From positions 1-64,000 of the IMG/VR virus record IMGVR_UViG_3300030002_000005: a stretch of 64,000 nt of DNA, one strand, 5' to 3'. Below, in pieces: positions 2,363 to 42,576 of this stretch. This DNA is from a virus. Position numbers and translations under genes: made by a program. Below the pieces are notes generated by a model. The model ran no database searches, was not told the origin of the DNA, and saw only the letters and a program-made list of their open reading frames with translations. Within the stretch, counting starts at the first letter, position 1, and each line of letters starts with the position of its first letter.

Positions 2363-2386
2363 AATTTTTTATAATTAATCTGCAAA

Positions 2387-5300
2387 TTAAATTGTAATGT
2401 CTATAATATTAATGTCGTCAAAGTTATCGATATATGACATATAAGCATTGTTACCGTTAACACTACCATATAATTTATATCTCTTATTAGTCATCACCTG
2501 TGCAGGTACAAAATATGTAGAATTATTAAAGAACGCATTATTAACGTTATATTTTAAAACATTGTCACCGAACGTAATGTTACGGTTACTGCTATCAAAA
2601 GTTATATACGCACAATTAGTACCAAATATAATGTTGCTGTTATCTGTACTCATAAATATATTACCAGTATTTGAGCCAATAAATATATTTGAATTTTCAC
2701 CTTGAATATATACACTGAAACAATTACTACTCATGCGAACGCCGTTATTATATGATCCAATGTTTACTTCAATTACGCCACCGCTTACAAGCACACTATT
2801 ATTATCAACGCTTATAATAACAGTGTCACAATTTGAGCCAATTGTGACACTGTTATTATATTCATCCATAAATAATGTACAATTGTCATTTCCAATTGTA
2901 ATATCATTATTGTAATTAGTAATAGCGACTGAATGATTATTAGAACCTATAGTAATATTGTTATTGCCTGCACCTATTGATATATTATGGTTACCAGAGC
3001 CGATTACAATATGTTCATTATTAGAGTCAATAGATATCATTGAATTTTCATAGCCGATGGTAATATCGCTACTATTAACAATTTTAATATCTTTAGCATA
3101 TACGCTATCAATAACAATATTAGGCAATACGTCATACCCAGAAATAATAACATTATTCTGAATATCAACACTCGATTCGGTATTCATCATCAAAAAATCA
3201 AGATATATACCTGCGTTAACAGCCAAATTATACATATTGCCATTATATTGTATAGGGAAATTTGTTGATGATGATGAAATATATGAGCCATTTTTAATGC
3301 CTGTATTAAACCAATTATCATAATCATTATTAGGATCTCCGCCTGTAACACCATCTTTTGCACATATATAAATACTATTATCAGCACTGTTATAAACCAA
3401 ATCTCCTGAATTATGTATATCATTTACATTCCATGCATTAGGAACGGTAACAGCCCATCTACGGTATTTGATATTTCTCCAATCAGTATATACGTCATTA
3501 TTATACACAGTATCGATTCTCCTGTATATAATCCCTTTTGTTGATCCAATACTGTTATTGGGTATTTGATAATATATAATATCATCAGTCCTTATTATAC
3601 TTGAACATATAGGATTTATAGCCCTACTTGAGATTGCTGTAAGCAATAATGGCTCTACAAATCCTGACTCAATATTTTCATTAGTAACAGGTCTTGTATA
3701 TGTCGTCATATAATCAGTTAATAAATATTGCTGTCCAGCTACAAATTCACCATTATCGTATAAAGTATAAAGATCATCATAAAGTATTTCAATAATACCA
3801 CCGCCGCTTCCGCTACCAAGTGCAACCCATTCCCCATCAAATTTATGGTAGAACTCATCACCAGTAATATTATTATGCCACATTTGTCCAACAGATATAA
3901 AAGTTAAAGCATTATCAGTATTCAAAGGGTCTCTATCAGCAAACAATTTAGGCTGAACCTTTCTCTTTGGCGGCACAGGTGGCAACGTGGTTGTTGTCGT
4001 GGTTGTTGTCGAGGTTGTAGACATCGGGACTGTATTGTTTATAGCATAATTTCCCTCTGCAACAGAGTTATTGCTACTATCAGCAAGAGCATATTGAGGA
4101 ATATATACAGAAACGCTATCGTCATATGATATTATATCGGTGTCTATTGTGATAGTTGTAGTCCCGTATACATGTGGAATGCGCTTTACTGATTGCTGAC
4201 CATTAATGAATATGATCATACTACCCAATGTCATATACTCATATACGTTCGTATTAAAGTGTATGATTATTCTATCATATTCGGTACTTGAGTTAACTAT
4301 ATGAGGAAATGGACTAACGGTGGTTGTCGTAGTTGTGGTTGTCGGAGGCAACGTGGTTGTTGTCGTGGTTGTTGTGGTTGTGGTTACAACCTCAGTTATA
4401 TTAACGGTGTTATTAGCTTGTAAATATTGAATATCTCCATCAGGATTTCCGCCATTCACAGTCATCAATTCAATTGGGATTGTCAAGCTAATTGTATTGC
4501 CAATATTATTAGCAAAAACAAAATTACTATCTGCTGTTGATCCTAAATTAACACATGATGATAAATTAAAAAATGTTGCCGCTATACAGTTATTAAAACA
4601 GCTATCAACGACAGATATCAAAGATGGTAAATTAAAAGACGTTGCAGATGTACAGCTATAAAATAAATATGCGCCAGAATTGGCTAAAGACGGTAAATTA
4701 AAAGACGTTGCAGATGTACAGGCATTAAAACAGCCAAATCCAGCTGATACAATGCATCCTAAGATATCATTAACAGAAATTAATGTCAAATTCGAATTAA
4801 ATATATCGTCCTTTAAATGAATGTTTGCTCCACCGAATAATTTAACGGTACTATCAAGAACCTCTACAGATGTAAACGCTGTACCATTATTAGGTAAGTC
4901 AAAAAATGCATTCCAAAAACTCACATCAGTTGACGACCCGCCTATCAAGGTATCGGCATTAGCTATATCATTAAATGTCAACTCTAAAGGATAATAAACT
5001 AAATTATAGTTTATATAATTTCTTGAATATAAATCACTTATATCACCATCAGGATTTCCGCCGTTAATAGTCATTAATGCTGCTGGTATTGTTAGGCTTA
5101 TATTTCCACCGCTAATATTATAAAAAACATTATTATTACCTAAATCAGTTCCTAAATTAGTACAAGAGGATAGATTAAATGAATTAGCTGCTGTGCATCC
5201 GCCAAAACAACTATTTCCAGCAGTTAATAGTAATGGCAATTCAAACGTATTTATGGAATTACAGCCATAAAAACATTGATCCCCAGCAGTTGCTAATGTG

Positions 5301-5602
5301 GGTAGATTTAAAGTATTAACTGACGTACAACCATAAAAGCATTGGTCTCCAGCACTCACAATACAATTAGTATCGCTAATAGAAAGCAGAGCTAATCTGT
5401 TTGCAAATAGCGAATCCTTTAAATGAATATTTGCGCCGCCAGCTAATATTACTGTATTCACATCGACAGATACGTTATTAATAGGCGTGCCATTATTAGG
5501 CAAGTCAAGGAATGTATTCCAAACATTAATATCTGACGATGATCCACCTATTAAGGCGTCAGCATTACTTATATTATCAAAAACTAAACTAAATGATGCC
5601 AT
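2387..5602 (-). CDS. Large modular tail fibre: LRR modules, poly-Thr linkers, beta-solenoid end
   Basis: 1071 residues. Residues 1-205 and 206-400 are two related cysteine-rich LRR modules (start FDNISNADALIGG, core TAGDQCFYGC), close relatives of the module at the end of the neighbouring adhesin. A poly-Thr/Leu-Pro linker follows (about 400-420), then an Ig-like beta domain (about 420-525) and a second poly-Thr linker (about 526-540). A fibre module comes next, with the motifs FVAGQQYLLTDY and WRNIKYRRW, shared with the next fibre. The end (about 837-1014) is a run of short N-x-I-x-I-G-like repeats, as expected of a beta-solenoid. Architecture and position argue for a receptor-binding fibre or adhesin. 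The receptor cannot be told from sequence. Confidence 0.75.
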   Translation of the reverse strand: MASFSLVFDNISNADALIGGSSSDINVWNTFLDLPNNGTPINNVSVDVNTVILAGGANIHLKDSLFANRLALLSISDTNCIVSAGDQCFYGCTSVNTLNLPTLATAGDQCFYGCNSINTFELPLLLTAGNSCFGGCTAANSFNLSSCTNLGTDLGNNNVFYNISGGNISLTIPAALMTINGGNPDGDISDLYSRNYINYNLVYYPLELTFNDIANADTLIGGSSTDVSFWNAFFDLPNNGTAFTSVEVLDSTVKLFGGANIHLKDDIFNSNLTLISVNDILGCIVSAGFGCFNACTSATSFNLPSLANSGAYLFYSCTSATSFNLPSLISVVDSCFNNCIAATFFNLSSCVNLGSTADSNFVFANNIGNTISLTIPIELMTVNGGNPDGDIQYLQANNTVNITEVVTTTTTTTTTTTLPPTTTTTTTTVSPFPHIVNSSTEYDRIIIHFNTNVYEYMTLGSMIIFINGQQSVKRIPHVYGTTTITIDTDIISYDDSVSVYIPQYALADSSNNSVAEGNYAINNTVPMSTTSTTTTTTTTLPPVPPKRKVQPKLFADRDPLNTDNALTFISVGQMWHNNITGDEFYHKFDGEWVALGSGSGGGIIEILYDDLYTLYDNGEFVAGQQYLLTDYMTTYTRPVTNENIESGFVEPLLLTAISSRAINPICSSIIRTDDIIYYQIPNNSIGSTKGIIYRRIDTVYNNDVYTDWRNIKYRRWAVTVPNAWNVNDIHNSGDLVYNSADNSIYICAKDGVTGGDPNNDYDNWFNTGIKNGSYISSSSTNFPIQYNGNMYNLAVNAGIYLDFLMMNTESSVDIQNNVIISGYDVLPNIVIDSVYAKDIKIVNSSDITIGYENSMISIDSNNEHIVIGSGNHNISIGAGNNNITIGSNNHSVAITNYNNDITIGNDNCTLFMDEYNNSVTIGSNCDTVIISVDNNSVLVSGGVIEVNIGSYNNGVRMSSNCFSVYIQGENSNIFIGSNTGNIFMSTDNSNIIFGTNCAYITFDSSNRNITFGDNVLKYNVNNAFFNNSTYFVPAQVMTNKRYKLYGSVNGNNAYMSYIDNFDDINIIDITI

Positions 5603-19761: not shown

Positions 19762-22257
19762 ATGGCTACAAAAAGAAATAATGATGATAATTCGGAAATT
19801 GATAATAATCAGTTCCCAGACCATATACCAGCTGTCGCTTTATCAAGTGCTAGCGAACAGATAAAAAAAGACGAATTAAGAAAATTAGCCAAGGAGCTAA
19901 GAAAATCTGGCGGTAAGGTTGAACCAGTTATCATAACAACAAACGGAACAATAAAAAAAGCCAGTGAACTTAATATGGCTGAAAAGAAATGCGAAATCGT
20001 AAGATGTACTTCTGACCCAGCCTATTTTATTGAGACCTATTTAACAATTTTTGACCAGACGCAAGGGCTTGCTGGTCGAATTGTTCCTTTTAAATTATTT
20101 CCTTTTCAGCGTAAATTAATTAAAGCATATTTATCATTCCGATATAATATTGCTAATAAATATAGACAGGCAGGTATTTCTACAGCAACATGTGCATTCA
20201 TTGCTTGGTATGTGATGTTTAATAGTAATAGAACGGCAGCGATTGTTGCCGATAAACTTGAAACTGCTCGTGACGAGTTAATGAATGACGTTGTTGAATT
20301 CATTGACGGCTGTCCTGACTGGCTTAGACCGAAAACAGGTAAAATGGCTGGTGCTGAAAAGAACTACAAAGATACTCAGAAGTTAAAACGTTATGATAAT
20401 AACTCCGCATTGGGTGCATTTTCAGCTAAGAGTGGACTTCGTGGTACAACTCCAACACTATTGTTTTGGGATGAAACTGCTTGGACTGAAAAATCTGATA
20501 AATTTTGGACTGCTGCCAGACCTACTATGAGTACAGGGGGTAGTACTATTATGGTAAGCACGCCATCTGGCTTAGACCCCGTTTTCTATAAAACATTTGA
20601 GGGTGCTAGAAAAAAGGAAGAAAAAAATAACTTTAATGCAATTGAATTATGGTGGTATAATGATCCACGATATAATAAAGACCTTGTTTGGCTGAAAAAC
20701 AAGAACAAGGATACTGAGATTAAGCTAGTTGACGATAATTGGGCTGACGACTATCGAATCAAATTAATGGATGACGGCTGGGAAGCTTCATCACCTTGGT
20801 TTGAGGAACAGGTAAGAGACGCCAACGGTGACATGAAAAAAATTGCTCAGGAAATTTTATGTGTTGGGAAAGATTCAATTGTAACCATAAGAGATGTTGC
20901 AACCTTGGATGTGATTAATTTAAGCATTTCCGAGTTATATAACAATTTGCCTCATTTAACGTCAAGTATAAATATAAACAGCAGACTTGAAATTTTCACC
21001 ACAAATGGATATTCGAAATTTTATGGCGTTGATAAAAAATATAAAAACAACGGATTTAAAGTTTCATTGGCGACCGATGATCAGATTGTAGTGAGTGAGG
21101 ATCATATATTTCTAGCTAATGGTAAGAATATGCCATTAAATTCATTAATACCAGATGTGTCATATCTTACTACTATTTATGAAGATTCATTCGTAAAATC
21201 GATTGAGCCGTGCGATGAAACAGAGTTTTATGATATTATTGATTCAGAGGGATGTGAATATTTTGCCAACAATATTTCAAATCATAATTGTTCATTCTTA
21301 GGTTCTGGCGATAACTTTATTGACGAAGAATATCTAAAAAGAATACAGGATCATGAGGTTAGAGTTCCAATACGTCAGGAATATACCGATAAGAATATGT
21401 GGATATTTGAAGATCCTATTCCAGAGGAACAATATGTTCTAGCTGTCGATGCATCGCCAGGCCATGGAGAGGATAATTCAACAATCAATATACTTAAACG
21501 TAATGAATATATTGAAAAGAAAATGATCACAAAAAATGGTAAGACAAAGGAAGTCAAGTTAAAGAAATTTAAAATAGAACAGGTTGCCGAATATTATGGT
21601 AAAATAGTGCCGCAAGGTCTTGCAGAAATCGTATACCAATATGGAAAGGCTTATAATAATGCTTATGTTGTCGTGGATATAACTGGTGGCTATGGTGTGC
21701 AAGCTGTTGAAAAATTATTGGAGATTGGCTATGACAATGTACACTATGCCGAAGTATCTCATAAACCGTCGAGAGATCGTTTACAGGGATACATTAAGAA
21801 AGGTCAGAAATCTATGACAGATGGTGCTGTTATTTATGTTGACTTAATTCCAGGTTTTTTCATAGGAAATAACAGAGCATCAGTGCTATTAGAGCTTCAA
21901 AGATCGATTCACTTAGAGGATATTATAATCAGATCAACAAGATTATTAATGGAATTGAAGACATTTGTTACTGTTGCTGGAAATCGTGTTGCAGACCATA
22001 AGAGATCATTTCACGATGACTCAATTATGGGACTGTCAATTGGACTATATGTTATCAACTTTGATATGGCTAGATTTAAACAAAGTAATAGCACGACTGA
22101 GCAAATGTTAAAATCTATTTTGTCTGCCAATGATATAAAGGTTATTAGCGAACAAAGAGGTGAGAAGCCTGTGCCAAAGATATCTCCGAATAGTTCATCG
22201 CCCTTAAATCCTTATATTGTAAATGCATGGCTATTTAGCGGCATAAAACAAAAATAA
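19762..22257 (+). CDS. terL: Large terminase subunit (gp17-like), intein-containing
   Basis: 831 residues as encoded, 688 after removal of a 143-residue intein. The ATPase has a Walker-A-like RQAGIST (135-141), where T4-type terminases have Gly-Lys-Thr. Walker B is LLFWDETA (233-240) and the coupling motif is MVSTPSG (about 258-264). The intein (residues 367-509) interrupts at EIL|CSFLGSG, just before the conserved SFLGSG motif. The nuclease has LAVDASPG (Asp near 563), VVVDITGG and HDDSIMG near the C-terminus. The protein pumps DNA into the prohead and cuts it. It is followed by the portal gene, as in T4. The missing Walker A lysine is seen in other terminases of the RQxGxST type. Confidence 0.93.
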   Translation: MATKRNNDDNSEIDNNQFPDHIPAVALSSASEQIKKDELRKLAKELRKSGGKVEPVIITTNGTIKKASELNMAEKKCEIVRCTSDPAYFIETYLTIFDQTQGLAGRIVPFKLFPFQRKLIKAYLSFRYNIANKYRQAGISTATCAFIAWYVMFNSNRTAAIVADKLETARDELMNDVVEFIDGCPDWLRPKTGKMAGAEKNYKDTQKLKRYDNNSALGAFSAKSGLRGTTPTLLFWDETAWTEKSDKFWTAARPTMSTGGSTIMVSTPSGLDPVFYKTFEGARKKEEKNNFNAIELWWYNDPRYNKDLVWLKNKNKDTEIKLVDDNWADDYRIKLMDDGWEASSPWFEEQVRDANGDMKKIAQEILCVGKDSIVTIRDVATLDVINLSISELYNNLPHLTSSININSRLEIFTTNGYSKFYGVDKKYKNNGFKVSLATDDQIVVSEDHIFLANGKNMPLNSLIPDVSYLTTIYEDSFVKSIEPCDETEFYDIIDSEGCEYFANNISNHNCSFLGSGDNFIDEEYLKRIQDHEVRVPIRQEYTDKNMWIFEDPIPEEQYVLAVDASPGHGEDNSTINILKRNEYIEKKMITKNGKTKEVKLKKFKIEQVAEYYGKIVPQGLAEIVYQYGKAYNNAYVVVDITGGYGVQAVEKLLEIGYDNVHYAEVSHKPSRDRLQGYIKKGQKSMTDGAVIYVDLIPGFFIGNNRASVLLELQRSIHLEDIIIRSTRLLMELKTFVTVAGNRVADHKRSFHDDSIMGLSIGLYVINFDMARFKQSNSTTEQMLKSILSANDIKVISEQRGEKPVPKISPNSSSPLNPYIVNAWLFSGIKQK
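20860..21288 (+). other. Mini-intein in the terminase (143 residues, no endonuclease)
   Basis: Starts with Cys1 (CVGKDSIVTIRD, residue 367) and ends with FANNISNHN followed by Cys+1 (CSFLGSG). The block B histidine is in SEDHIFL and the block F pattern is FYDIIDSEG. Rejoining gives an extein matching the conserved terminase sequence. There is no LAGLIDADG or HNH region between the splicing halves, so it cannot home by itself. Confidence 0.92.
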
Positions 22258-25109: not shown

Positions 25110-25141
25110 AAAAAAGCCTCTGAATTTCAGAGGCTTTTTTT
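25108..25141. terminator. Bidirectional terminator between convergent genes
   Basis: 8-bp GC-containing stem (GCCTCTGA/TCAGAGGC) flanked by A8 and T7, so it works on both strands. It overlaps the stop codons of the 252-residue gene and of the giant hub gene. Confidence 0.92.
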
Positions 25142-28100
25142 ATGCTAAATGTGTACTATGATCGTCCAAGGCTAGCTCGTCCATTTTCAGAATGTTTGCT
25201 GCATAGAACGACTTATTCAACGTATCAAAAATACCATATACATATTTTACACCTGTAGATATATCCGCCTCACTTATGCCATTCATCCTAGCTCTTTCGA
25301 TTGTGGCGGCATAGTTTTTTGCATAATGTGATCCATGATAATAACAGAAGATACTACTAGATGCAAGTCCATTACACTGTCTCTCAATCGATTCAATTAG
25401 TGAACAGTGAGCTTTTATCATTATTTCTGGATTATCAAATACGTTTTGCATGAATATAGGCAAATTGGTGTCGGATTTCATGATATTTCTTTCGTACTTA
25501 ATTTCAGAATTACTCTTAAATGGACTTAAAAGCATAGCTGTATCATTAGTACTCATGCCTTTAAGTAAGCTATTCTTTTCGGTTGATGTAAATTCAGATG
25601 ATTTTAATATAGCACGTATAGCTGTTTCAGTTATAAATTGTGACATGCCCATAGCTGCAACCGTTCTGTCTTTATTATACGAATAGTTTGCAGTTCTATA
25701 TCCAGATTCTTTATATTCCTCAGCCGCTATAATGTTTGCATTCAAATTATATTTAGCTGAATAGTAATTAATCATCGAGATAATTGCCTCAGCATAATTG
25801 CTATTTGTCATTACAACATTAGGAGTTTCTGAAAGTACATTACCATTTGCGTCCATTGTTCGGTGTGTGTATGACGGCGTTGCTACCCATGTTCTCTGTA
25901 TACCATTATAATAAGCGGTTTTTGAGAATAATTCATTGTGATGATAACTTGCACACACTGATTTAATAAAGTCTTCACCTTTGCTTGTCAATTTAACAAA
26001 TGCCCCACCGATCTTATGTTCATACATTGATTTAACCCTACCCATATCTCCGATTGGAGTCTTTATCTCTGCCACTGTGTTATCGTCATTATTTGACACA
26101 TGCGAACTACTTCCGCCGTATCCGAATGCTACTGATGACTCGATTACTCTTGGTATAGGATATTTCAATATCTTTGTACCATTGAAAGAGGTTGTCATAT
26201 GGTTTTCACTGATGTTATGCTCAACGCCCAATATCAAATACACGCCATTATACATGGGAACGTTTTCCAATTGAAAATACTGTGTCGGTTGAATCATTGC
26301 ATTTCCAAGTCCTGTTACTGTAGCCTTATATGCTCTATTCTCATAAAGATTGAAAAGATTCTGACCTTTTGGCGTCGGTGCTTGTTTAGAATTGTCTCCA
26401 GCTAATCTTGATAAAATTTGCAATGATTCATTTGTTTCAGGGAATTCTTTGCTATCAATTTTAATGTCTTTAAACATGCTTTGATTCTGCGCACCGAATT
26501 TAATCTTGAACGCATTCACATTGCTCCAGTCTACATTTTTATTGTTCATTTGATTCAGGTTTTCGCCAGCACTCTCAAAAATAAATGCTTTGTCGTTAAA
26601 GACCTGTGATTCCTTGTCCAAGTTTTCAATACCGTCATTAAAGTAATTGTTGTTACTATTTGACAGATAATTTGACGAACCGCCGACATACATGCAGACA
26701 TACATTGGACTGGTATTTATAATTGTACCTGTGTTAATTCTAAAACAGTCTTTCCAATTCTCAGAGCCTTTTACGGTCATAAAATTCTGAATTGGAAAGA
26801 ATTCGAATCCGTTGACAGATAATAGTGTACTTAGAACTGTGAATATACTTGTTTCATCACTCTCAAACAAATTAACAAGCATTTCAGGATTTATCATTGT
26901 GTCGCCAATAGGATTCATGCTACGATCAACAAACGCAAACATATCAATAAGCCTATTTCCACTTAAATTAAATGGATAACCTATAATTGTTGGGCTTGTT
27001 CCTGAAATCCATTTATCATTTATATTTTTAAATGAATAATACATTTGATTTATAACATCCTTATCCTGTGACATGCTTTTAAAGGCATTATCATCGTCAA
27101 CAATTGCTTTCTTTCTAAATCTCAATTCACTGCCAAGTTTTTTAAAGAAGGTTGTGAAGAAGTCGCCGACAGCTTTGTTTGAGGCTGGTGATGTTACAAT
27201 AGTAGCTAATGATGTATACTTGTCATTATCTGGAGTCATTTTAAATGTAATCTCGTTATAATTTATCAGATAAATCCTATTCATCATCAATTTATCAATA
27301 CCTGCGCTAGTAATAGCTTCTTCGTAATATTTAGTACGATTAAGTACGTCTCTATTTAAAGCAACTGTATACATATTAGCCATCGCAAGTCTTAGCTGTG
27401 GAAAACGGCTAGCCATAAAATCGTTATATTGCGCAATAAATGCGGCTTTATCATTCTTGCTCAAATATTTGTTACAGTCATGCATATCAGCAAATAAATG
27501 CACATTAGCTATATTACTAAATAATTCTTTCATTGCATCAACTTTAAATGACGATGATGATACCCTCAATATTGCTCCAATGTATGCTGGCATAAATTCT
27601 GGCATTTCCACAATAGATGCAAATGAAAATGTTGACTCATTAAGATAATTTGGTGCTTTGTTAAACATTGAGCATGTATTTCCAAAGCTGGACAAATAAA
27701 ATAAAGATAACATTTCTGGATCATTCAATGTTGTCATGCCATAAGTGTCAAATAACGTTTTAGCATGTGCGCCCAAAAATGTTGACCATATGTCTATAAA
27801 GTCGCCTGCATTTTTCAACTCAAAGGCAGTAACCTTGTCTACCAATGAGTCGTATAGAATATTTCCACTGTTAAACAATTGATCAATTGTGTGCGATGTT
27901 GCGTCACCATGTCCACACAAGAATTTTGTAGCGGTGAAAGGCATGTCAGGCGTATTATTAGTGTCTTTAATAACTAAAACATTTTCCTTTGAGTAAAAGT
28001 ATTTCTTTCCATAATAGTCTGTATCAATGAATGCCCATACTGGCGGTCTCATTTTCTTTATGGCAGCATTTAATGGATCGCTTTCGTCTGTTACGTCAGA

Positions 28101-30215
28101 TTTTGGCGTTATGTCTAGCTTATTATTAATCTCAAACCCGACGTAGTTATCATTTTCGCGTGACGTATAAAAATCAACGCCATTTAAATTGGCTGATGCG
28201 TCCTCGAAATTATATAGTGATGATAATTCATTTTTTGCATATGTTAGAAAAGAACTGATATCCGAAGCGTATTTATCTGATTGAGTGATCATCATATCAA
28301 CAACAACAGAATCCTGAATTGAATTTGCTAAATTAATAGCCTCAGAATTACTATACATTTGCGTATATAATTCGTTGTTAAGAACAGCATTGCGTACAGT
28401 ATTAGTCAATACGTTATATCTTTCAATTAGTTTACCATATGTATAGCCAGCATCCCTAGGATTATCATATGGTGTCATACTGCCAGTTGAATGACTGGTG
28501 GCAAACACTGAATCGGCTGGCGTGAATGGAATCCAAACATTGTCGCCGTTTGTATTTGCATTATCTTTACTGTGTAATTTTTTTAGCTCTTTCTTATATT
28601 TTAAGTAAGTTGCAATATAATCGTCAATAAAGTCTAATTCTGGAAATTTAATACCCATTCTCTCACGCAGGTCTATAGGCGACTCTCTTTTATTGTTTTC
28701 GATAATCAATGGAAACGAATAGATTACATCTGTATTCTGCTGCTCTCCATTAGTATACGCCTTATCAGCTACAAATAAACCCTTATCAATAGTATGTTCA
28801 TTCTGTGCCTTATTTGCGGTATATCTTAGAGCATCGAAAAATGTGTCAACATCATCTAACAATATTTCGAATATATTATATATGGTAGGGTTCATACCCA
28901 GAATGTCATATACCATTTTATTTATATTCGTAGTTAAGTCATCGCTAGCTTTATTTTTTGAATTTGTGGACTTAGCACTTTGGCTACGCAATAAGTTATA
29001 CATATCAGTAATATCAATACAAACATATTCAACGATTCTATTGCCGTTTCTGCTCATATTGTTAATTATTTTAGGCGATTTTATAGTACCTGTAAAAGAT
29101 AGAGCATCGCCAGAGAATAAAAGATCAAACCTTTTAATAACTTCTGTAGTATAATTCTTCAAAGCATTTATCAACATATTGGTAGTGCTGTCAGTTACAG
29201 TTGTAAAAACTTGCGTTGGGGTAATAGTTGTAGTTCCAGCCAAAACACCTGTTTCAAATCCTATTAATAAGGCTGGCTTTGGTGAATTCTTAGTGACATA
29301 ATTATAGTCCTTATATTTGCTTCTATAGCTGTTAAAGGATGGAATTAGTACCAATTGCTCATTATCTGTCTTAGCGGCATCGGTTGTCAGTGTATATATC
29401 TCAGGACTACCTACTCTTAAGTATTCGTCTTCTTTGAATGACGAAAGGAATGTAAAGGCTTCTGAATTATTTTCAATACCTGTAATTGACTTTGTTAATA
29501 CGCCACTGTTAACATCATTTTTTATTTTGTTTGGTAAAACCGAATACAAATTCTTAATCTTTTCGATAAGATCAAGCGTATTAGTAGGTCTAACACCAAC
29601 ATTGGTGCTAAGCGTTTCGCCTTTACCTATAAATGCTGTATGAGCCGAATATTGAAGCAAGACATCGCTTAATGGTGCATAAGTCATAGCTACAAAGTCT
29701 GCATCAATAACAAAGTTGCCAGTTTCTGACTGAAACTCACTAGTATATTTAACTAAATGTAATTTATATGTAAGAGCCTTTCCATAAAATCCTTTTATGG
29801 TCAGCTCAAATGTTGGAGGCGGAAAGTCAAATAATATTCTATATGGTGATTCGGCATTATTAAAGAATGATAATCCTCGAATGTCAGCAAATTTGATATT
29901 CACCTGCGGTATGAAGGACGAATTAATAACAGTTTTTATAGACGTAATACCAAATGCTTCCTGAGTATTCGGTGTACTTCCGTCATACCAATTTGTGGTA
30001 AAGTCAAGGTTCTTATTTCCACCTAGAAAATTGGTTTCAAAATCTGATCCACTTTCTGTCTTCACTTTGGCAGAGTTGCCATTAATAGTTATAACAGTTC
30101 TATCCTTTGCAGTGGCTGTTAATTTGGCGAAAATATGCATGTCTTGATACTGTGGAGCACCATTAATAACATTCTCATTATTTATTTCATTAGGATCGAT
30201 TAAATTGACAGCCAT
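25140..30215 (-). CDS. Giant baseplate hub-like protein with lytic transglycosylase domain
   Basis: 1691 residues. The N-terminal 190 residues are beta-rich and hub-like. Near residues 1330-1355 the phrase QLENVPMYNGVYLILGVEHN matches the final strands of gp27/gpD-type hub domains. Residues about 1485-1620 form an SLT lytic transglycosylase domain: catalytic Glu in KESGY (about residue 1501) followed by AAMGMSQFI, the usual AMGLMQ motif. The enzyme would cut peptidoglycan during injection (family knowledge). A single polypeptide combining hub and murein-cleaving activity suits its isolated late unit (variant late motif at 30229-30238). The middle 1100 residues are unassigned. Confidence 0.75.
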   Translation of the reverse strand: MAVNLIDPNEINNENVINGAPQYQDMHIFAKLTATAKDRTVITINGNSAKVKTESGSDFETNFLGGNKNLDFTTNWYDGSTPNTQEAFGITSIKTVINSSFIPQVNIKFADIRGLSFFNNAESPYRILFDFPPPTFELTIKGFYGKALTYKLHLVKYTSEFQSETGNFVIDADFVAMTYAPLSDVLLQYSAHTAFIGKGETLSTNVGVRPTNTLDLIEKIKNLYSVLPNKIKNDVNSGVLTKSITGIENNSEAFTFLSSFKEDEYLRVGSPEIYTLTTDAAKTDNEQLVLIPSFNSYRSKYKDYNYVTKNSPKPALLIGFETGVLAGTTTITPTQVFTTVTDSTTNMLINALKNYTTEVIKRFDLLFSGDALSFTGTIKSPKIINNMSRNGNRIVEYVCIDITDMYNLLRSQSAKSTNSKNKASDDLTTNINKMVYDILGMNPTIYNIFEILLDDVDTFFDALRYTANKAQNEHTIDKGLFVADKAYTNGEQQNTDVIYSFPLIIENNKRESPIDLRERMGIKFPELDFIDDYIATYLKYKKELKKLHSKDNANTNGDNVWIPFTPADSVFATSHSTGSMTPYDNPRDAGYTYGKLIERYNVLTNTVRNAVLNNELYTQMYSNSEAINLANSIQDSVVVDMMITQSDKYASDISSFLTYAKNELSSLYNFEDASANLNGVDFYTSRENDNYVGFEINNKLDITPKSDVTDESDPLNAAIKKMRPPVWAFIDTDYYGKKYFYSKENVLVIKDTNNTPDMPFTATKFLCGHGDATSHTIDQLFNSGNILYDSLVDKVTAFELKNAGDFIDIWSTFLGAHAKTLFDTYGMTTLNDPEMLSLFYLSSFGNTCSMFNKAPNYLNESTFSFASIVEMPEFMPAYIGAILRVSSSSFKVDAMKELFSNIANVHLFADMHDCNKYLSKNDKAAFIAQYNDFMASRFPQLRLAMANMYTVALNRDVLNRTKYYEEAITSAGIDKLMMNRIYLINYNEITFKMTPDNDKYTSLATIVTSPASNKAVGDFFTTFFKKLGSELRFRKKAIVDDDNAFKSMSQDKDVINQMYYSFKNINDKWISGTSPTIIGYPFNLSGNRLIDMFAFVDRSMNPIGDTMINPEMLVNLFESDETSIFTVLSTLLSVNGFEFFPIQNFMTVKGSENWKDCFRINTGTIINTSPMYVCMYVGGSSNYLSNSNNNYFNDGIENLDKESQVFNDKAFIFESAGENLNQMNNKNVDWSNVNAFKIKFGAQNQSMFKDIKIDSKEFPETNESLQILSRLAGDNSKQAPTPKGQNLFNLYENRAYKATVTGLGNAMIQPTQYFQLENVPMYNGVYLILGVEHNISENHMTTSFNGTKILKYPIPRVIESSVAFGYGGSSSHVSNNDDNTVAEIKTPIGDMGRVKSMYEHKIGGAFVKLTSKGEDFIKSVCASYHHNELFSKTAYYNGIQRTWVATPSYTHRTMDANGNVLSETPNVVMTNSNYAEAIISMINYYSAKYNLNANIIAAEEYKESGYRTANYSYNKDRTVAAMGMSQFITETAIRAILKSSEFTSTEKNSLLKGMSTNDTAMLLSPFKSNSEIKYERNIMKSDTNLPIFMQNVFDNPEIMIKAHCSLIESIERQCNGLASSSIFCYYHGSHYAKNYAATIERARMNGISEADISTGVKYVYGIFDTLNKSFYAANILKMDELALDDHSTHLA

Positions 30216-34185: not shown

Positions 34186-34548
34186 ATGAAAGAATTAATT
34201 AAATTAATAATCGAAAATCTGGATGACAGCTTATTAAAGCCTAAATACAGAAAAATGCCATTCAGAAACAAATATACAGGTCACTGTTATGTTGCAACTG
34301 AAACGTTATATCATTTATTAGATGATGACGAAAAGGAAATTTATTGTCCATCAATATTAAAAATAAATAACGATACTCACTGGTTTTTAAAAAATAAACT
34401 TGATGGCACAATCATAGATATTACAAAAAATCAATATGATTTTGATATCAATTATAATGAGTCAAGATATTCAGCATTTTTAACAAAAGCACCCTCAAAA
34501 AGATCACAAACGCTAATACATAGAATATATGAGGAATCTGGTTTATAA
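34186..34548 (+). CDS. Small protein with papain-like Cys-His-Asp order
   Basis: 120 residues from the ATG at 34186 (a GTG at 34177 would add three). Not recognised by name. The order Cys (GHCYVATE, near residue 32), His (NDTHWFL) and Asp (GTIIDIT) is the triad order of the transglutaminase/NlpC papain-like fold, so a cysteine hydrolase or its remnant is possible. This is inference from motif order. It starts downstream of the host-type promoter and overlaps the homing endonuclease gene by 20 nt, so the two are expressed together. AT-richer than the neighbouring capsid gene. Confidence 0.6.
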   Translation: MKELIKLIIENLDDSLLKPKYRKMPFRNKYTGHCYVATETLYHLLDDDEKEIYCPSILKINNDTHWFLKNKLDGTIIDITKNQYDFDINYNESRYSAFLTKAPSKRSQTLIHRIYEESGL

Positions 34549-36025
34549 TAAAACTATAATCCTATTTCTAAGCATCGATGATATGATCACGATGAACAGA
34601 GGGGATTTAAAAAAAATTAAAGAAAATTATTTAACATCTTATGAAAACTGTATAATTTATAATTATCATGATTTAAAACATCATAAAAACATCATAAAAG
34701 ATAAGATAAATAAGTTGAATTTTAGAGATCAAATAAGAATTAATGCTAGAGAATGTAAAATACGACACATTGAAAATACTGTAAAAAATGATTTTTTAAA
34801 TGTAAATCACATACAAGGAACTGATAAGTCTCAAATTTTTTACGGTGCTTATAAAAATGAGGAGCTGATTGCTGTCATGACTTTCGATAATAAATCAAAA
34901 ATGAACGGCAAACAAAATGATAATGAATTTGATTTGTCAAGATTTTCGATAAGTTTAGGACATATTGTCGTTGGAGTTTTTTCTAAGATTTTAAAACAAT
35001 TCATAAACGATTATAAGCCATTAAAAATAACATCATACGCCGATCTAAATTATACAAATAAAGATAAAAATATATATGATTCAAATAATTTTTATCTGAA
35101 TAAAGTTATTCAACCAGATTACAAGATTTTATTAAAAAGTTCAAATATTTTATATCATAAATTTACTTACGGCACTAAATTTTTTAGAAACAATGAAATT
35201 AGCGACATACAAAAAAGTATGATAAGGGATGATTCTAAAAGGGTGTGGAACTGTGGTAAATTACGATACGTTATCAGATTGAATGAGAATAATATGGTTA
35301 TTTTTGGTTATATATATAAAATAACTAATGCATTAAACGGTAAAATCTATATAGGTCAAACAACTCGAACACTTAATAAAAGAATATGGGAGTATAAAAG
35401 TGCATATAATAAAGGTGCATTTTATAATCAATATTTATTAAACTCATTTAATAAATATGGCTGGGATGCATTTGAATTCACCATGATTGATAGTGCCACA
35501 AATATAACCGAACTAAATGAAAAAGAAATCTATTACATTTCGAAATATAAATCAAATGATCGAAAATTTGGATATAACATAGAATCTGGCGGATGTAATT
35601 CAATTCCATCTACAGAAACTCTTGAGAAAATGTCAAGATCACATTTAGGAATTAAGCAAAGCACTGAATGGATAAATAAGCGAATATCTCTTGCTGGGTC
35701 TGATAACGCAAAAAAATACGGCAAAGCAAAGACAGATGATGAAAAAACAGAATTGAGCATAAATTCTCCAAAATTCTGGCTCGGTAAAGAAAGAGATCAG
35801 ACCACAAAGGATAAAATAAGTCAAACTAAATTAAAAAATGGTATATCTGATAAACAGAAGGAAGTATTATGTAAAACAGTTTACAAAAGAAATCTAAATA
35901 ACATCATAATAAATACATATGAGTCCACATTAATAGCTTCTAAGTCTGAGGGTGTTAATCAGTCTACAATATCAAGATGGTGTAAAGATAATAAAACAAT
36001 GAATGGCTTTAAATGGTCATATTGA
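34529..36025 (+). CDS. Homing endonuclease: N-terminal GNAT-like/Mom-like domain fused to GIY-YIG
   Basis: 498 residues. The N-terminal half contains GAYKNEELIAVMTF, DLSRFSIS and LKITSYADLNYTNK followed by KDSNNF-type residues, a module found next to endonuclease domains in mobile phage genes and resembling acetyltransferase-like Mom folds (family knowledge, low certainty). From residue 256 a GIY-YIG nuclease begins (GYIYKITN, then GKIYIGQTT). NUMOD-type repeats follow (WLGKERDQTTKDKISQTK) and a DNA-binding end (STISRWCKDNKTMNGFKWSY). Two normally separate mobile-gene modules are joined in one frame. It is free-standing between capsid and helicase genes, not in an intron. Confidence 0.75.
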   Translation: MRNLVYNKTIILFLSIDDMITMNRGDLKKIKENYLTSYENCIIYNYHDLKHHKNIIKDKINKLNFRDQIRINARECKIRHIENTVKNDFLNVNHIQGTDKSQIFYGAYKNEELIAVMTFDNKSKMNGKQNDNEFDLSRFSISLGHIVVGVFSKILKQFINDYKPLKITSYADLNYTNKDKNIYDSNNFYLNKVIQPDYKILLKSSNILYHKFTYGTKFFRNNEISDIQKSMIRDDSKRVWNCGKLRYVIRLNENNMVIFGYIYKITNALNGKIYIGQTTRTLNKRIWEYKSAYNKGAFYNQYLLNSFNKYGWDAFEFTMIDSATNITELNEKEIYYISKYKSNDRKFGYNIESGGCNSIPSTETLEKMSRSHLGIKQSTEWINKRISLAGSDNAKKYGKAKTDDEKTELSINSPKFWLGKERDQTTKDKISQTKLKNGISDKQKEVLCKTVYKRNLNNIIINTYESTLIASKSEGVNQSTISRWCKDNKTMNGFKWSY

Positions 36026-40383: not shown

Positions 40384-40634
40384 TCTTTTACCTCAACTAA
40401 ATCTTTGGGATACACTGATATGTAATATCCATTTTCAGTTATAATTATGTTCTTCTCTCTGAGAAATATCTCAACATTCTTGCCTTTAAGTTCATTAATA
40501 AAACTATCCATAGCTTGAATTAAAGTATCATCGCTATATTTGGTTGCTAGGAATATCATATCCTTAGCAACCTCAAGACCAATTTTAATAATAATCACTT
40601 CTGTTCCTACTTCTAGTTTTCTTCGTCTTCTCAT
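40380..40634 (-). CDS. Small hypothetical protein
   Basis: 84 residues starting MRRRRKLEVG; not recognised. It is a small alpha/beta protein with a helical centre (AMDSFINELKGKNVEIFLREKN). It overlaps both neighbours by 4 nt (ATGA), in a late unit with the homing endonuclease in front and the membrane protein behind, so expression is coupled. Confidence 0.6.
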   Translation of the reverse strand: MRRRRKLEVGTEVIIIKIGLEVAKDMIFLATKYSDDTLIQAMDSFINELKGKNVEIFLREKNIIITENGYYISVYPKDLVEVKE

Positions 40635-41365
40635 TTGTATTTATAATTGCTAAATTTATTATTTTTACTCATAACTCGCCACCTTATGGTAGCCATTGGA
40701 ATACATAATACTTTTGAAGCCTCACCAGCTGATCGATATTCAATATCATTAACTATAATTGAAATGTTTTGTTCGCCATTATATTTTCCAGTCATGCTAT
40801 TAGATAAAGCCTCTCTTGTAACATTACTGTGATGTTTTCCAAAAAATGAATTTCCATCGCCAGACTTATCCGAACATTTTCTACAAGTTTTAGCTGAATA
40901 ACTCATAACGTTACCACATTTACAATACTTAATATTTATACCACCCTTCCAATTAGGGTTTAACTCCATCGGTCTCGAATATTTTGTTTTACGACAGTCA
41001 TCGCTCATATTAAGAATTGTCTCACGCAAGCTAATTTTCATTCGTCGAATAATATCGTCTCTATTCGGATTGTTCGTTAAATTATCTCCACCACTAGATA
41101 TTATGCCAATATTATATTCAGGCTTCAAGTCTAAATATTTTTGCTCAATCTCAAGCAAATCATCGAACATACATTCTTTAACAATTTCAAAAACAAAGTT
41201 ATCGCCGCCATATTTATTCCACGCTCTTTGTAAATGAGCATTTTCATGCTTATTATGTATCAATCCGCTTTTATGTCTTTGCCATCTTCTTATGATATTC
41301 TTAGCAGAGCCAATATAGCTGTCATTGGTAATGGTATTTCGAATTCGATAAATTCCAGTTTTCAT
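40631..41365 (-). CDS. GIY-YIG homing endonuclease with zinc ribbon
   Basis: 244 residues. GIY at residues 4-6 and YIG at 17-19 (TGIYRIRN then SYIGSAKN), catalytic Arg in NIIRRWQRHK and Glu in LLEIEQKYLD. A zinc-ribbon-like CxCGN...CRKC pair lies near residues 145-165, then a NUMOD3-like SFFGKHHSN segment and a DNA-binding end (GEASKVLCIPMATIRWRVMS). A free-standing mobile gene that cuts a specific site in related phages lacking it. The 3' end overlaps the next gene by 4 nt. It has an exact late promoter motif, so unlike the first endonuclease it is expected late. Confidence 0.88.
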   Translation of the reverse strand: MKTGIYRIRNTITNDSYIGSAKNIIRRWQRHKSGLIHNKHENAHLQRAWNKYGGDNFVFEIVKECMFDDLLEIEQKYLDLKPEYNIGIISSGGDNLTNNPNRDDIIRRMKISLRETILNMSDDCRKTKYSRPMELNPNWKGGINIKYCKCGNVMSYSAKTCRKCSDKSGDGNSFFGKHHSNVTREALSNSMTGKYNGEQNISIIVNDIEYRSAGEASKVLCIPMATIRWRVMSKNNKFSNYKYK

Positions 41366-41421: not shown

Positions 41422-42576
41422 TTATTTCGCAAGTCCCACAAATAATTCATAGTTTATTTTTGGGTATGACTCGTATCCAACCAACTCAAAATCATTTATA
41501 TCTAATGATAAAATATCATCAAGATTATTCAATTCTTTGTTAATTTTCATTTCAGGCAAGCCTAACGGAGTTCTAGTAAGCTGTTCTTTAGCTGTTTCAA
41601 CATGATTAACATATAGATGTGTATCTCCACCAATCCATGTTGATATTCCAGCTATCATATTATTTGCTTTTGCAAACAACATCAATAATAAAGACATTGA
41701 CGCTAAATTAAATGGAATTCCAAGCGCAGAATCTGCCGATCTTTGATACATGTTTAGGTCAAGATAGAACTTTGGTATGTTCTGTTTATCAAGATATTCA
41801 ATATTTTCTTTTGAGTATTCTATACCAATCGGATCGGGACAATTGTCGCCATGTATATCATTTTCGCTTGTATACGTACTATCAATATCGTAAACAGCAT
41901 TGCCCAATATAACATGAACCATTTCACCATTGTCATAATACATTTTCACCCTTTTCTCAATACTTATAGGTCTGACGATAAACTGATATAACAAATGACA
42001 TGGTGGAAGGGCCATTTCTTTGAACTCGGCTTTGTTCCATGCATCAATAATATGATAGCGTGAGTATGGATTATTTTTCAAGCCGTCTAATACCTCGGCA
42101 ACCTGATCAACACCATTTTGATTTCTCCATTGATAACCATAAACTTTACCAAGATCGCCTAATTTATATGATAAATCATCACCAAGCTGATTTAATTTAA
42201 TTCTCTCAACGAATTCTTCGGATGTGAATGGTCTGGTCTTATTTTCAATTGGGTCGTCCATCAAATAGTCGTAATCAGGCTCAACCATTGTGCCGACATA
42301 CTTTAAATACCAACGATATGCATCACTATTCCAGATATTGCAATTGTTATCAATAAGATATTTAATGTTTGTTTCGCCACGTAGAAACCATAGCAATTCA
42401 TGAATAATGCCTTTCCAATGCATTTTCTTTGTCGTTAGCAATGGAAAGCCCTTTTGCAAGTCCATTTTTATAACCGCATGCGATATGCCAATTGTATTAG
42501 GCATATTGGCTCTGCCACTTTCTTTTTCAACGCCCTTAGCGATGATCTTTTTCAAAACCTTTTGATAACTTTTCAT
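41422..42576 (-). CDS. thyA: Thymidylate synthase (ThyA)
   Basis: 384 residues, about 120 longer than E. coli ThyA. The catalytic motif PPCHLLYQF (Cys193), the YQRSADSALGIPFNL motif (about 278-291), and the C-terminal DFELVGYESYPKI identify it. It makes dTMP from dUMP with methylene-tetrahydrofolate. Two insertions are visible: residues about 81-135 (known in long-type ThyA) and about 204-269, between the catalytic strand and YQRS motif, which is unusual. Next to dUTPase (about 1.1 kb upstream) in an early unit, so together they supply dTMP. All active-site residues checked are present. Confidence 0.95.
   Translation of the reverse strand: MKSYQKVLKKIIAKGVEKESGRANMPNTIGISHAVIKMDLQKGFPLLTTKKMHWKGIIHELLWFLRGETNIKYLIDNNCNIWNSDAYRWYLKYVGTMVEPDYDYLMDDPIENKTRPFTSEEFVERIKLNQLGDDLSYKLGDLGKVYGYQWRNQNGVDQVAEVLDGLKNNPYSRYHIIDAWNKAEFKEMALPPCHLLYQFIVRPISIEKRVKMYYDNGEMVHVILGNAVYDIDSTYTSENDIHGDNCPDPIGIEYSKENIEYLDKQNIPKFYLDLNMYQRSADSALGIPFNLASMSLLLMLFAKANNMIAGISTWIGGDTHLYVNHVETAKEQLTRTPLGLPEMKINKELNNLDDILSLDINDFELVGYESYPKINYELFVGLAK

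What the first reader, a model, noticed from the sequence alone, without database searches (positions are those of the whole stretch)
20860..21288. Mini-intein in the large terminase subunit
143 residues with Cys1, block B His and C-terminal Asn followed by Cys+1, inserted next to the conserved SFLGSG of the ATPase-nuclease hinge. No endonuclease domain. Splicing is required for packaging, so it is expected to be active. Loss of the endonuclease fits a resident, fixed element; other endonucleases encoded in the window might move it.
Basis: seen in the sequence. Interest (0 to 1): 0.65.

Follow-up and report, generated by a model that had tools for sequence, protein, structure and literature searches.

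The report
One-piece mini-intein in phage packaging motor
A phage's DNA-packaging enzyme carries a small self-removing protein segment in one piece, whereas nearly all its relatives at the same spot are broken in two around a DNA-cutting enzyme gene, so together they show stages of how such parasitic elements arrive, break, decay and perhaps heal.

Summary
Confirmed: window 20860-21288 is a 143-residue contiguous mini-intein (Cys1, block-B His, HN end, Cys+1) inside a T4-type large terminase; spliced product 688 residues. The predicted fold is an intein fold (pLDDT 93.7), with inteins leading the PDB ranking. 54 distinct homologues carry a precise empty site, 52 of them already with Cys at +1. 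Two relatives keep the split but have a deleted endonuclease; one cultured Vibrio phage is split with no endonuclease; only two or three lineages, this window's included, are contiguous. The terminase tree pairs the window with a split-form phage (87% identity), while the intein tree rejects that pairing: alleles at this site have different histories. Whether the contiguous form is a re-fused fractured intein or a survivor from before the fracture is not settled; I lean to re-fusion. No splicing was measured.

The parts
19762..22257 (+). terL gene, large terminase subunit precursor (831 aa; 688 aa after splicing)
   Evidence: Terminase_6N 8.8e-10; T4 gp17
19762..20859 (+). N-extein, 366 aa, ATPase domain, ends ..KKIAQEIL
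20860..21288 (+). contiguous mini-intein, 143 aa
   Evidence: empty-site comparison
20860..20967 (+). part homologous to the separate IntN of the split relatives (residues 1-36, block A)
20947..20985 (+). S2 loop (residues 30-42) between helix 23-29 and strand 43-47; the place where relatives are broken and hold the endonuclease ORF
   Evidence: residues 31-40 among the lowest-confidence blocks of the model
20968..21288 (+). part homologous to the separate IntC of the split relatives (residues 37-143, blocks B, F, G)
21103..21105 (+). block-B His82
   Evidence: invariant column
21283..21288 (+). penultimate His142 and terminal Asn143
21289..21291 (+). Cys+1, first residue of the C-extein, present in 52 of 54 distinct empty-site homologues
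21289..22254 (+). C-extein, 322 aa, nuclease domain, begins CSFLGSG

Best explanation
The insert is a contiguous, cis-splicing class-1 mini-intein at the hinge between ATPase and nuclease of a T4-type terminase. Expected mechanism (from established intein chemistry, not measured here): Cys1 takes over the upstream peptide bond as a thioester, helped by His82; Cys+1 of the terminase attacks it; Asn143 cyclises; the two exteins join as ..AQEIL-CSFLGSG... It is the one-piece allele of a hinge-site intein family that in most intein-bearing relatives is broken at the S2 position by an inserted homing-endonuclease ORF and must splice in trans. The endonuclease-bearing split alleles appear to spread between phages; the window's allele has no endonuclease and seems to be inherited with the terminase in the lineage it shares with L006.
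For: Residues and frame. Predicted fold pLDDT 93.7; best PDB matches gp41-1 intein E 9.9e-8 and VidaL 7.2e-7; second look Z 19.5 to Mvu TFIIB mini-intein, 18.3 VidaL, 18.1 gp41-1. Sequence match to gp41-1 E 3.1e-6; profile match to the CatC fragment of the atypical Cat intein E 0.0011. Precise empty site in 54 distinct loci, and in 58 of 80 loci chosen by C-extein similarity alone. Purifying pattern: differences window versus L006 intein 39/30/78 at codon positions 1/2/3, chi-square p 1.7e-6. Split relatives with IntN, endonuclease, IntC at the identical site. Terminase tree: window with L009, 100/99; intein tree: window with L006, 96/95, and window+L009 rejected, AU p 8e-102.
Against: Pfam Intein_splicing scores below its cut-off. 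Block B has Ser in place of the usual Thr. No splicing assay or spliced peptide is on hand. dS is saturated, so only the codon-position pattern is firm. Vertical inheritance of the window/L006 intein rests on two lineages (terminase 69.2%, intein 57.0% identity). The local DNA comparison around the site showed no clear co-conversion tract, so exchange rests on the trees and identities alone.
Confidence: 0.9

Rival explanations
1. Origin A: the contiguous intein is a healed fractured gene. An endonuclease-bearing split allele lost its endonuclease by deletion and the two intein halves fused in frame, giving a cis-splicing mini-intein with an enlarged S2 loop.
For: Decay of the endonuclease with the split kept is seen twice: L062 (in-frame internal deletion to 46 aa) and L081 (first ~96 aa, then deletion and frameshift). 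Vibrio phage EniLVp02 is split with no endonuclease, the two ORFs overlapping by 32 nt. Every hinge-site intein read in distant phages is split at S2 (Va1, PSTRCR_127, PX29, VP-1 by eye, EniLVp02, L089). With outgroups the window/L006 pair nests beside split rows (90/85) and L059 elsewhere in the clade; in 0% of 200 bootstrap trees are the three contiguous rows one side of a branch. The window has 43 residues before its EIF strand, the gp41-1 chain at most 27.
Against: The AU test does not reject the three contiguous rows as one group (p 0.217, 0.179, 0.171), nor window+L006 together with the Va1 outgroup (p 0.446). Contiguous inteins at other terminase sites also have long S2 loops. No endonuclease relic is visible in the window's loop.
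Confidence: 0.58
2. Origin B: the contiguous intein is older. A contiguous hinge mini-intein was invaded at S2 by an endonuclease ORF that fractured it; window/L006 and perhaps L059 descend from before the invasion.
For: Basal placement of window/L006 is not excluded. Contiguous inteins are common at other sites of the same protein in other phages. A review gives 'split from mini-intein' as the usual direction (PMC7765530, passages).
Against: Needs L059 to be either a second survivor or a re-fusion, since it groups with split rows (92/90; 90/89). No contiguous hinge-site intein was found in the more distant phages that I read.
Confidence: 0.4
3. The insert is an ordinary terminase domain that stays in the protein.
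For: The reading frame is open through it; no splicing was measured.
Against: Absent with base precision in 58 of 80 homologues; intein fold and all splice residues; in relatives the two halves lie on separate ORFs.
Confidence: 0.02
4. The mini-intein is still mobile, moved in trans by another endonuclease of the phage (collaborative homing).
For: Two GIY-YIG ORFs in the window (34529-36025, 40631-41365); such cases are described for introns (PMC10448857, passages).
Against: Neither lies near terL or is tied to its sequence; the intein pair window/L006 is more diverged than their terminases, as for vertical descent.
Confidence: 0.07

Closest known systems
AceL-TerL, GOS-TerL and the consensus Cat-TerL split inteins (PMC11766414 and PMC13014065, passages; PDB 6dsl)
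   Same: Terminase large-subunit inteins with Cys+1; split relatives of the window break at the same S2 place, with IntN 36-41 and IntC 107-108 residues (published GOS-TerL 37 + 115, AceL-TerL 25 + 104); profile match to CatC E 0.0011
   Different: The window's intein is one piece and needs no trans association; the match is weak; the published inteins' exact insertion site was not compared here
Fractured genes with split inteins and EDxHD/Vsr-like homing endonucleases (Dassa et al. 2009, not held, seen only in reference lists; I-Bth0305I, PDB 3r3p; PMC3943268, passages)
   Same: The relatives' middle ORF ends in a domain matching I-Bth0305I (profile E 9.3e-4; top Foldseek hit) and lies between the intein halves
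   Different: The window has no endonuclease and no break; the relatives' break is at S2 and not at the canonical endonuclease site
gp41-1 intein (PDB 6qaz)
   Same: Best sequence and Foldseek match
   Different: Other host protein; canonical split site (recalled); shorter S2 region
Aeromonas phage PX29 gp17A/17B (GenBank GU396103 notes 'N-intein' and 'GIY-YIG endonuclease and C-intein')
   Same: Same hinge site of a T4-type terminase
   Different: Split, with a GIY-YIG endonuclease fused to IntC
Mycobacteriophage TerL inteins (PMC5050341, passages)
   Same: Inteins in terminase; the five tested ones spliced
   Different: Their seven sites are in the ATPase domain; this one lies after it

Membership tests
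Class-1 intein | nucleophile at residue 1 and Cys/Ser/Thr at +1 | tested here: met
   Cys1, Cys+1
Class-1 intein | block-B His and C-terminal His-Asn | tested here: met
   His82, His142-Asn143 invariant in 18 rows
Class-1 intein | HINT/intein fold | tested here: met
   pLDDT 93.7
Class-1 intein | insert missing in homologues without loss of frame | tested here: met
   58 of 80 loci; 54 distinct
Class-1 intein | self-splicing | not testable with these tools
   needs a reporter or mass spectrometry
Mini-intein | contiguous, without endonuclease domain | tested here: met
   143 aa in one frame; no endonuclease match in the record
Atypical (S2) split TerL inteins | gene broken after the first helix | tested here: not met
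   the window is contiguous; its relatives meet it
Atypical (S2) split TerL inteins | sequence kinship with AceL/GOS/Cat-TerL | tested here: met
   profile to CatC E 0.0011, weak
EDxHD homing endonuclease (for the relatives' ORF) | I-Bth0305I-like catalytic domain | tested here: met
   profile E 9.3e-4; Foldseek first rank, prob 1.00 but E 0.06
EDxHD homing endonuclease (for the relatives' ORF) | site-specific cleavage of the empty site | not testable with these tools
   needs an assay
PF14890 Intein_splicing | score over the curated cut-off | tested here: not met
   17 bits against 35.8

The most novel reading that the evidence does not exclude
The window holds a healed fractured gene: a split intein that lost its homing endonuclease and was re-joined into one cis-splicing piece, which happened in at least two lineages (window/L006 and L059). 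Split inteins would then be a reversible stage in a homing cycle: empty, fractured with endonuclease, fractured with decayed endonuclease, fractured without endonuclease, contiguous.
Probability: 0.5. Interest if true: 0.72.

Novelty: new variant of a known kind. Interest (0 to 1): 0.55.

Why it matters
Terminase S2-split inteins are used in protein labelling, yet how a gene comes to be broken there, and whether it can mend, is open. One terminase site now shows empty, split with full endonuclease, split with decayed endonuclease, split without, and contiguous alleles in related phages, with at least two endonuclease families (EDxHD-like, GIY-YIG) using the same gap. That makes the direction of change testable and gives natural cis/trans pairs of one intein. 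It also bears on the statement that all endonuclease domains residing within inteins sit at one conserved site (PMC6801210, abstract and passages): here they sit at S2, which may be possible because the gene is broken.

Tried and rejected
Co-conversion tract next to the insert in L009: no clear tract; inconclusive. Rooting the intein tree with distant inteins: long branches, direction not settled; hinge-site inteins as one group against other-site inteins neither found nor rejected (p 0.322). Relatives in the collection of bacterial and archaeal genomes: none of 21 pattern matches is a relative. Pfam for the relatives' endonuclease: DUF559 below cut-off except in Va1. An intein in the window's thymidylate synthase (384 aa): extra segments only, no intein. 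Rfam: no match at gathering score in the window. Literature: nine searches listed no report of a contiguous relative of S2-split TerL inteins; Dassa 2009 and one further look-up were not held, and Thiel 2014 was seen only in reference lists.

Rows dropped: near-identical contigs were represented once or a few times in the trees (35 terminase rows, 29 intein rows); truncated loci (4 of 80; L008 and L028 of the 28) could not be scored at the site. L083 was left out of one tree and VP-1's hinge intein out, its IntN/endonuclease border being unclear. Pfam was run on 40 window ORFs, not on every ORF.

Full report
What is there. The terL ORF (19762-22257) encodes 831 residues. Residues 78-298 match the ATPase of T4 gp17, and 538-591 match a solved terminase nuclease domain. 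Residues 367-509 (20860-21288) are the insert: 143 residues from Cys1 to His-Asn, followed by Cys. Removal leaves 688 residues. The neighbours are T4-type: portal gp20, prohead protease, capsid gp23, tail sheath. Four IMG/VR contigs carry the whole gene at 100% protein identity and two more carry parts of it (L001-L005, L008); over the 4493 bases compared, the four are identical to the window in DNA.

It is an intein. By sequence the insert's best relative of known structure is the gp41-1 intein, E 3.1e-6. AlphaFold2 on 18 rows gives pLDDT 93.7. The Foldseek ranking is led by inteins (gp41-1 9.9e-8, VidaL 7.2e-7); the second look gives Z 19.5 to the Mvu TFIIB mini-intein at 1.6 A over 140 residues. 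Pfam's intein model alone stays below its cut-off. Window and L006 inteins differ at 39, 30 and 78 of 143 first, second and third codon positions (p 1.7e-6): the protein is under selection.

Empty sites. Of 28 loci found with the terminase, 15 have ..QELL-SFLGSG-type junctions with nothing between, 7 are contiguous (5 of them the window's own sequence), 4 are split, 2 do not cover the site. Of 80 chosen by C-extein similarity only, 58 are empty, 9 split with endonuclease, 1 split with part of it, 1 split with a remnant, 7 contiguous (four are the window's own contigs, two are L006/L007, one is L059), 4 truncated. In 54 distinct empty loci the +1 residue is Cys in 52 and Gly in 2, so the intein uses a nucleophile that the terminase already has.

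The fractured relatives. In L009-L012 the same site holds two intein halves. The first ORF carries IntN behind TerL-N; the last begins with an IntC of 107-108 residues starting at its own ATG and running into TerL-C. Between them lies an ORF of about 386 residues. In the four loci read at DNA level its stop codon overlaps the IntC start (ATGTTAA or ATGCTGA). Of 17 distinct loci with the full ORF printed, 8 have it fused in frame behind IntN and 9 have IntN ended by its own stop codon. The middle ORF's C-terminal domain matches I-Bth0305I, the type of the EDxHD homing endonucleases (profile E 9.3e-4; first Foldseek rank, E 0.06); Pfam gives DUF559 weakly, and above the cut-off only for Vibrio phage Va1. 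A viral-contig scan with this ORF returned 21 loci, of which 20 were placed at this terminase site; the other, L077, I did not score. The break falls after the first helix, the S2 position that published AceL-TerL and GOS-TerL use (PMC13014065, PMC11766414, passages), and the intein profile reaches the CatC chain at E 0.0011.

Decay stages. L062 keeps the split, but its endonuclease is an in-frame remnant of 46 residues joining the first and last parts. L081 keeps about 96 residues and then runs into a deletion and frameshift. L059 is a second contiguous form, 147 residues, with its own S2 loop.

Cultured phages. Same hinge site, by sequence reading: Vibrio Va1 (DUF559-type ORF fused to IntC), Providencia PSTRCR_127 (SegE-type GIY-YIG ORF), Aeromonas PX29 (GIY-YIG fused to IntC, so annotated in GenBank), Vibrio VP-1 (GIY-YIG-like ORF; domain by eye), Vibrio EniLVp02 (no endonuclease; the ORFs overlap by 32 nt), and contig L089 (other ORF, not classified). 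Campylobacter CP21 and IBB_35 have an S2-type split at another terminase site, with a T5orf172 ORF in CP21. Salmonella ISTP3 has a contiguous intein in Walker A. VmeM-32 and SRB7757 have an empty hinge.

Trees. Terminase (35 rows): window with L009, 100/99; with L006 added, 94/93. The split label shows 12 changes, as in shuffled labels (mean 12.2), and the empty label 9 (shuffled 10.7): the element comes and goes. Intein (29 rows): window with L006, 96/95 (100/99 without outgroups); L009 with L050, 98/92; window+L009 rejected, p 8e-102. Identities agree: window-L009 terminase 87.0%, intein 47.6%; L009-L050 terminase 72.9%, intein 81.9%. So L009 and the window hold alleles of different history at the same site. 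The DNA around the site shows no clear conversion tract.

Direction. The window/L006 pair and L059 fall among different split rows, never as one side of a branch in 200 bootstrap trees, but the AU test does not reject one group (p 0.17-0.22), nor window+L006 with the Va1 outgroup (p 0.446). The hinge inteins read in distant phages are all split, and decay of the endonuclease within the split state is seen. I therefore lean to healing by fusion (0.58) over survival of an older contiguous form (0.40). Shown: anatomy, empty site, split relatives, decayed endonucleases, tree conflict. Inferred: splicing, homing, direction.

Literature. Papers were read as passages only. A review holds that mini-inteins come from endonuclease loss and that split inteins may come from breaks in mini-inteins (PMC7765530); an abstract states that endonuclease domains within inteins sit at one conserved place (PMC6801210). 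The searches named in Tried and rejected listed no report of a contiguous counterpart of S2-split TerL inteins, but key older papers were not held, so absence from print is not shown.

Noticed in passing
L006 about 2597-4000; L012 about 2385-3764; L059 about 2677-4044: A second, large insert in the same terminase just before TPSGL in the ATPase domain, by eye an intein (LAGLIDADG-like in L006 and L012; not tested; L059 known only from the gap between two matches); empty in the window.
   Followed up: partly
window 34529-36025 (+): 498-residue ORF with a GIY-YIG domain (6.2e-8) shortly after the gp23 capsid gene: a likely free-standing homing endonuclease.
   Followed up: partly
window 40631-41365 (-) and 41422-42576 (-): GIY-YIG protein with an I-TevI zinc finger next to thymidylate synthase, the gene whose intron encodes I-TevI in T4 (recalled); here no known intron was found and the synthase is uninterrupted, with extra segments at residues about 85-140 and 203-271.
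   Followed up: partly
L170 507-1649 and 1618-2793 (Vibrio phage EniLVp02): S2-split terminase intein without endonuclease; the IntC part is annotated as a hypothetical protein.
   Followed up: partly
L095 1032-5318, L091 1005-6278 (Campylobacter CP21, IBB_35): Terminase interrupted by several inteins: contiguous in Walker A, S2-split with a middle ORF (T5orf172 in CP21), and a third; GenBank calls parts hypothetical or MobE.
   Followed up: partly
L169 (Vibrio VP-1): Terminase with a contiguous Walker A intein and a hinge intein whose N-part runs into a GIY-YIG-like ORF.
   Followed up: partly
window 25140-30215 (-): 1691-residue ORF without a Pfam match among structural genes.
   Followed up: no
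window 2387-5602 (-): 1071-residue protein with BspA-type leucine-rich repeats (1.4e-16).
   Followed up: no
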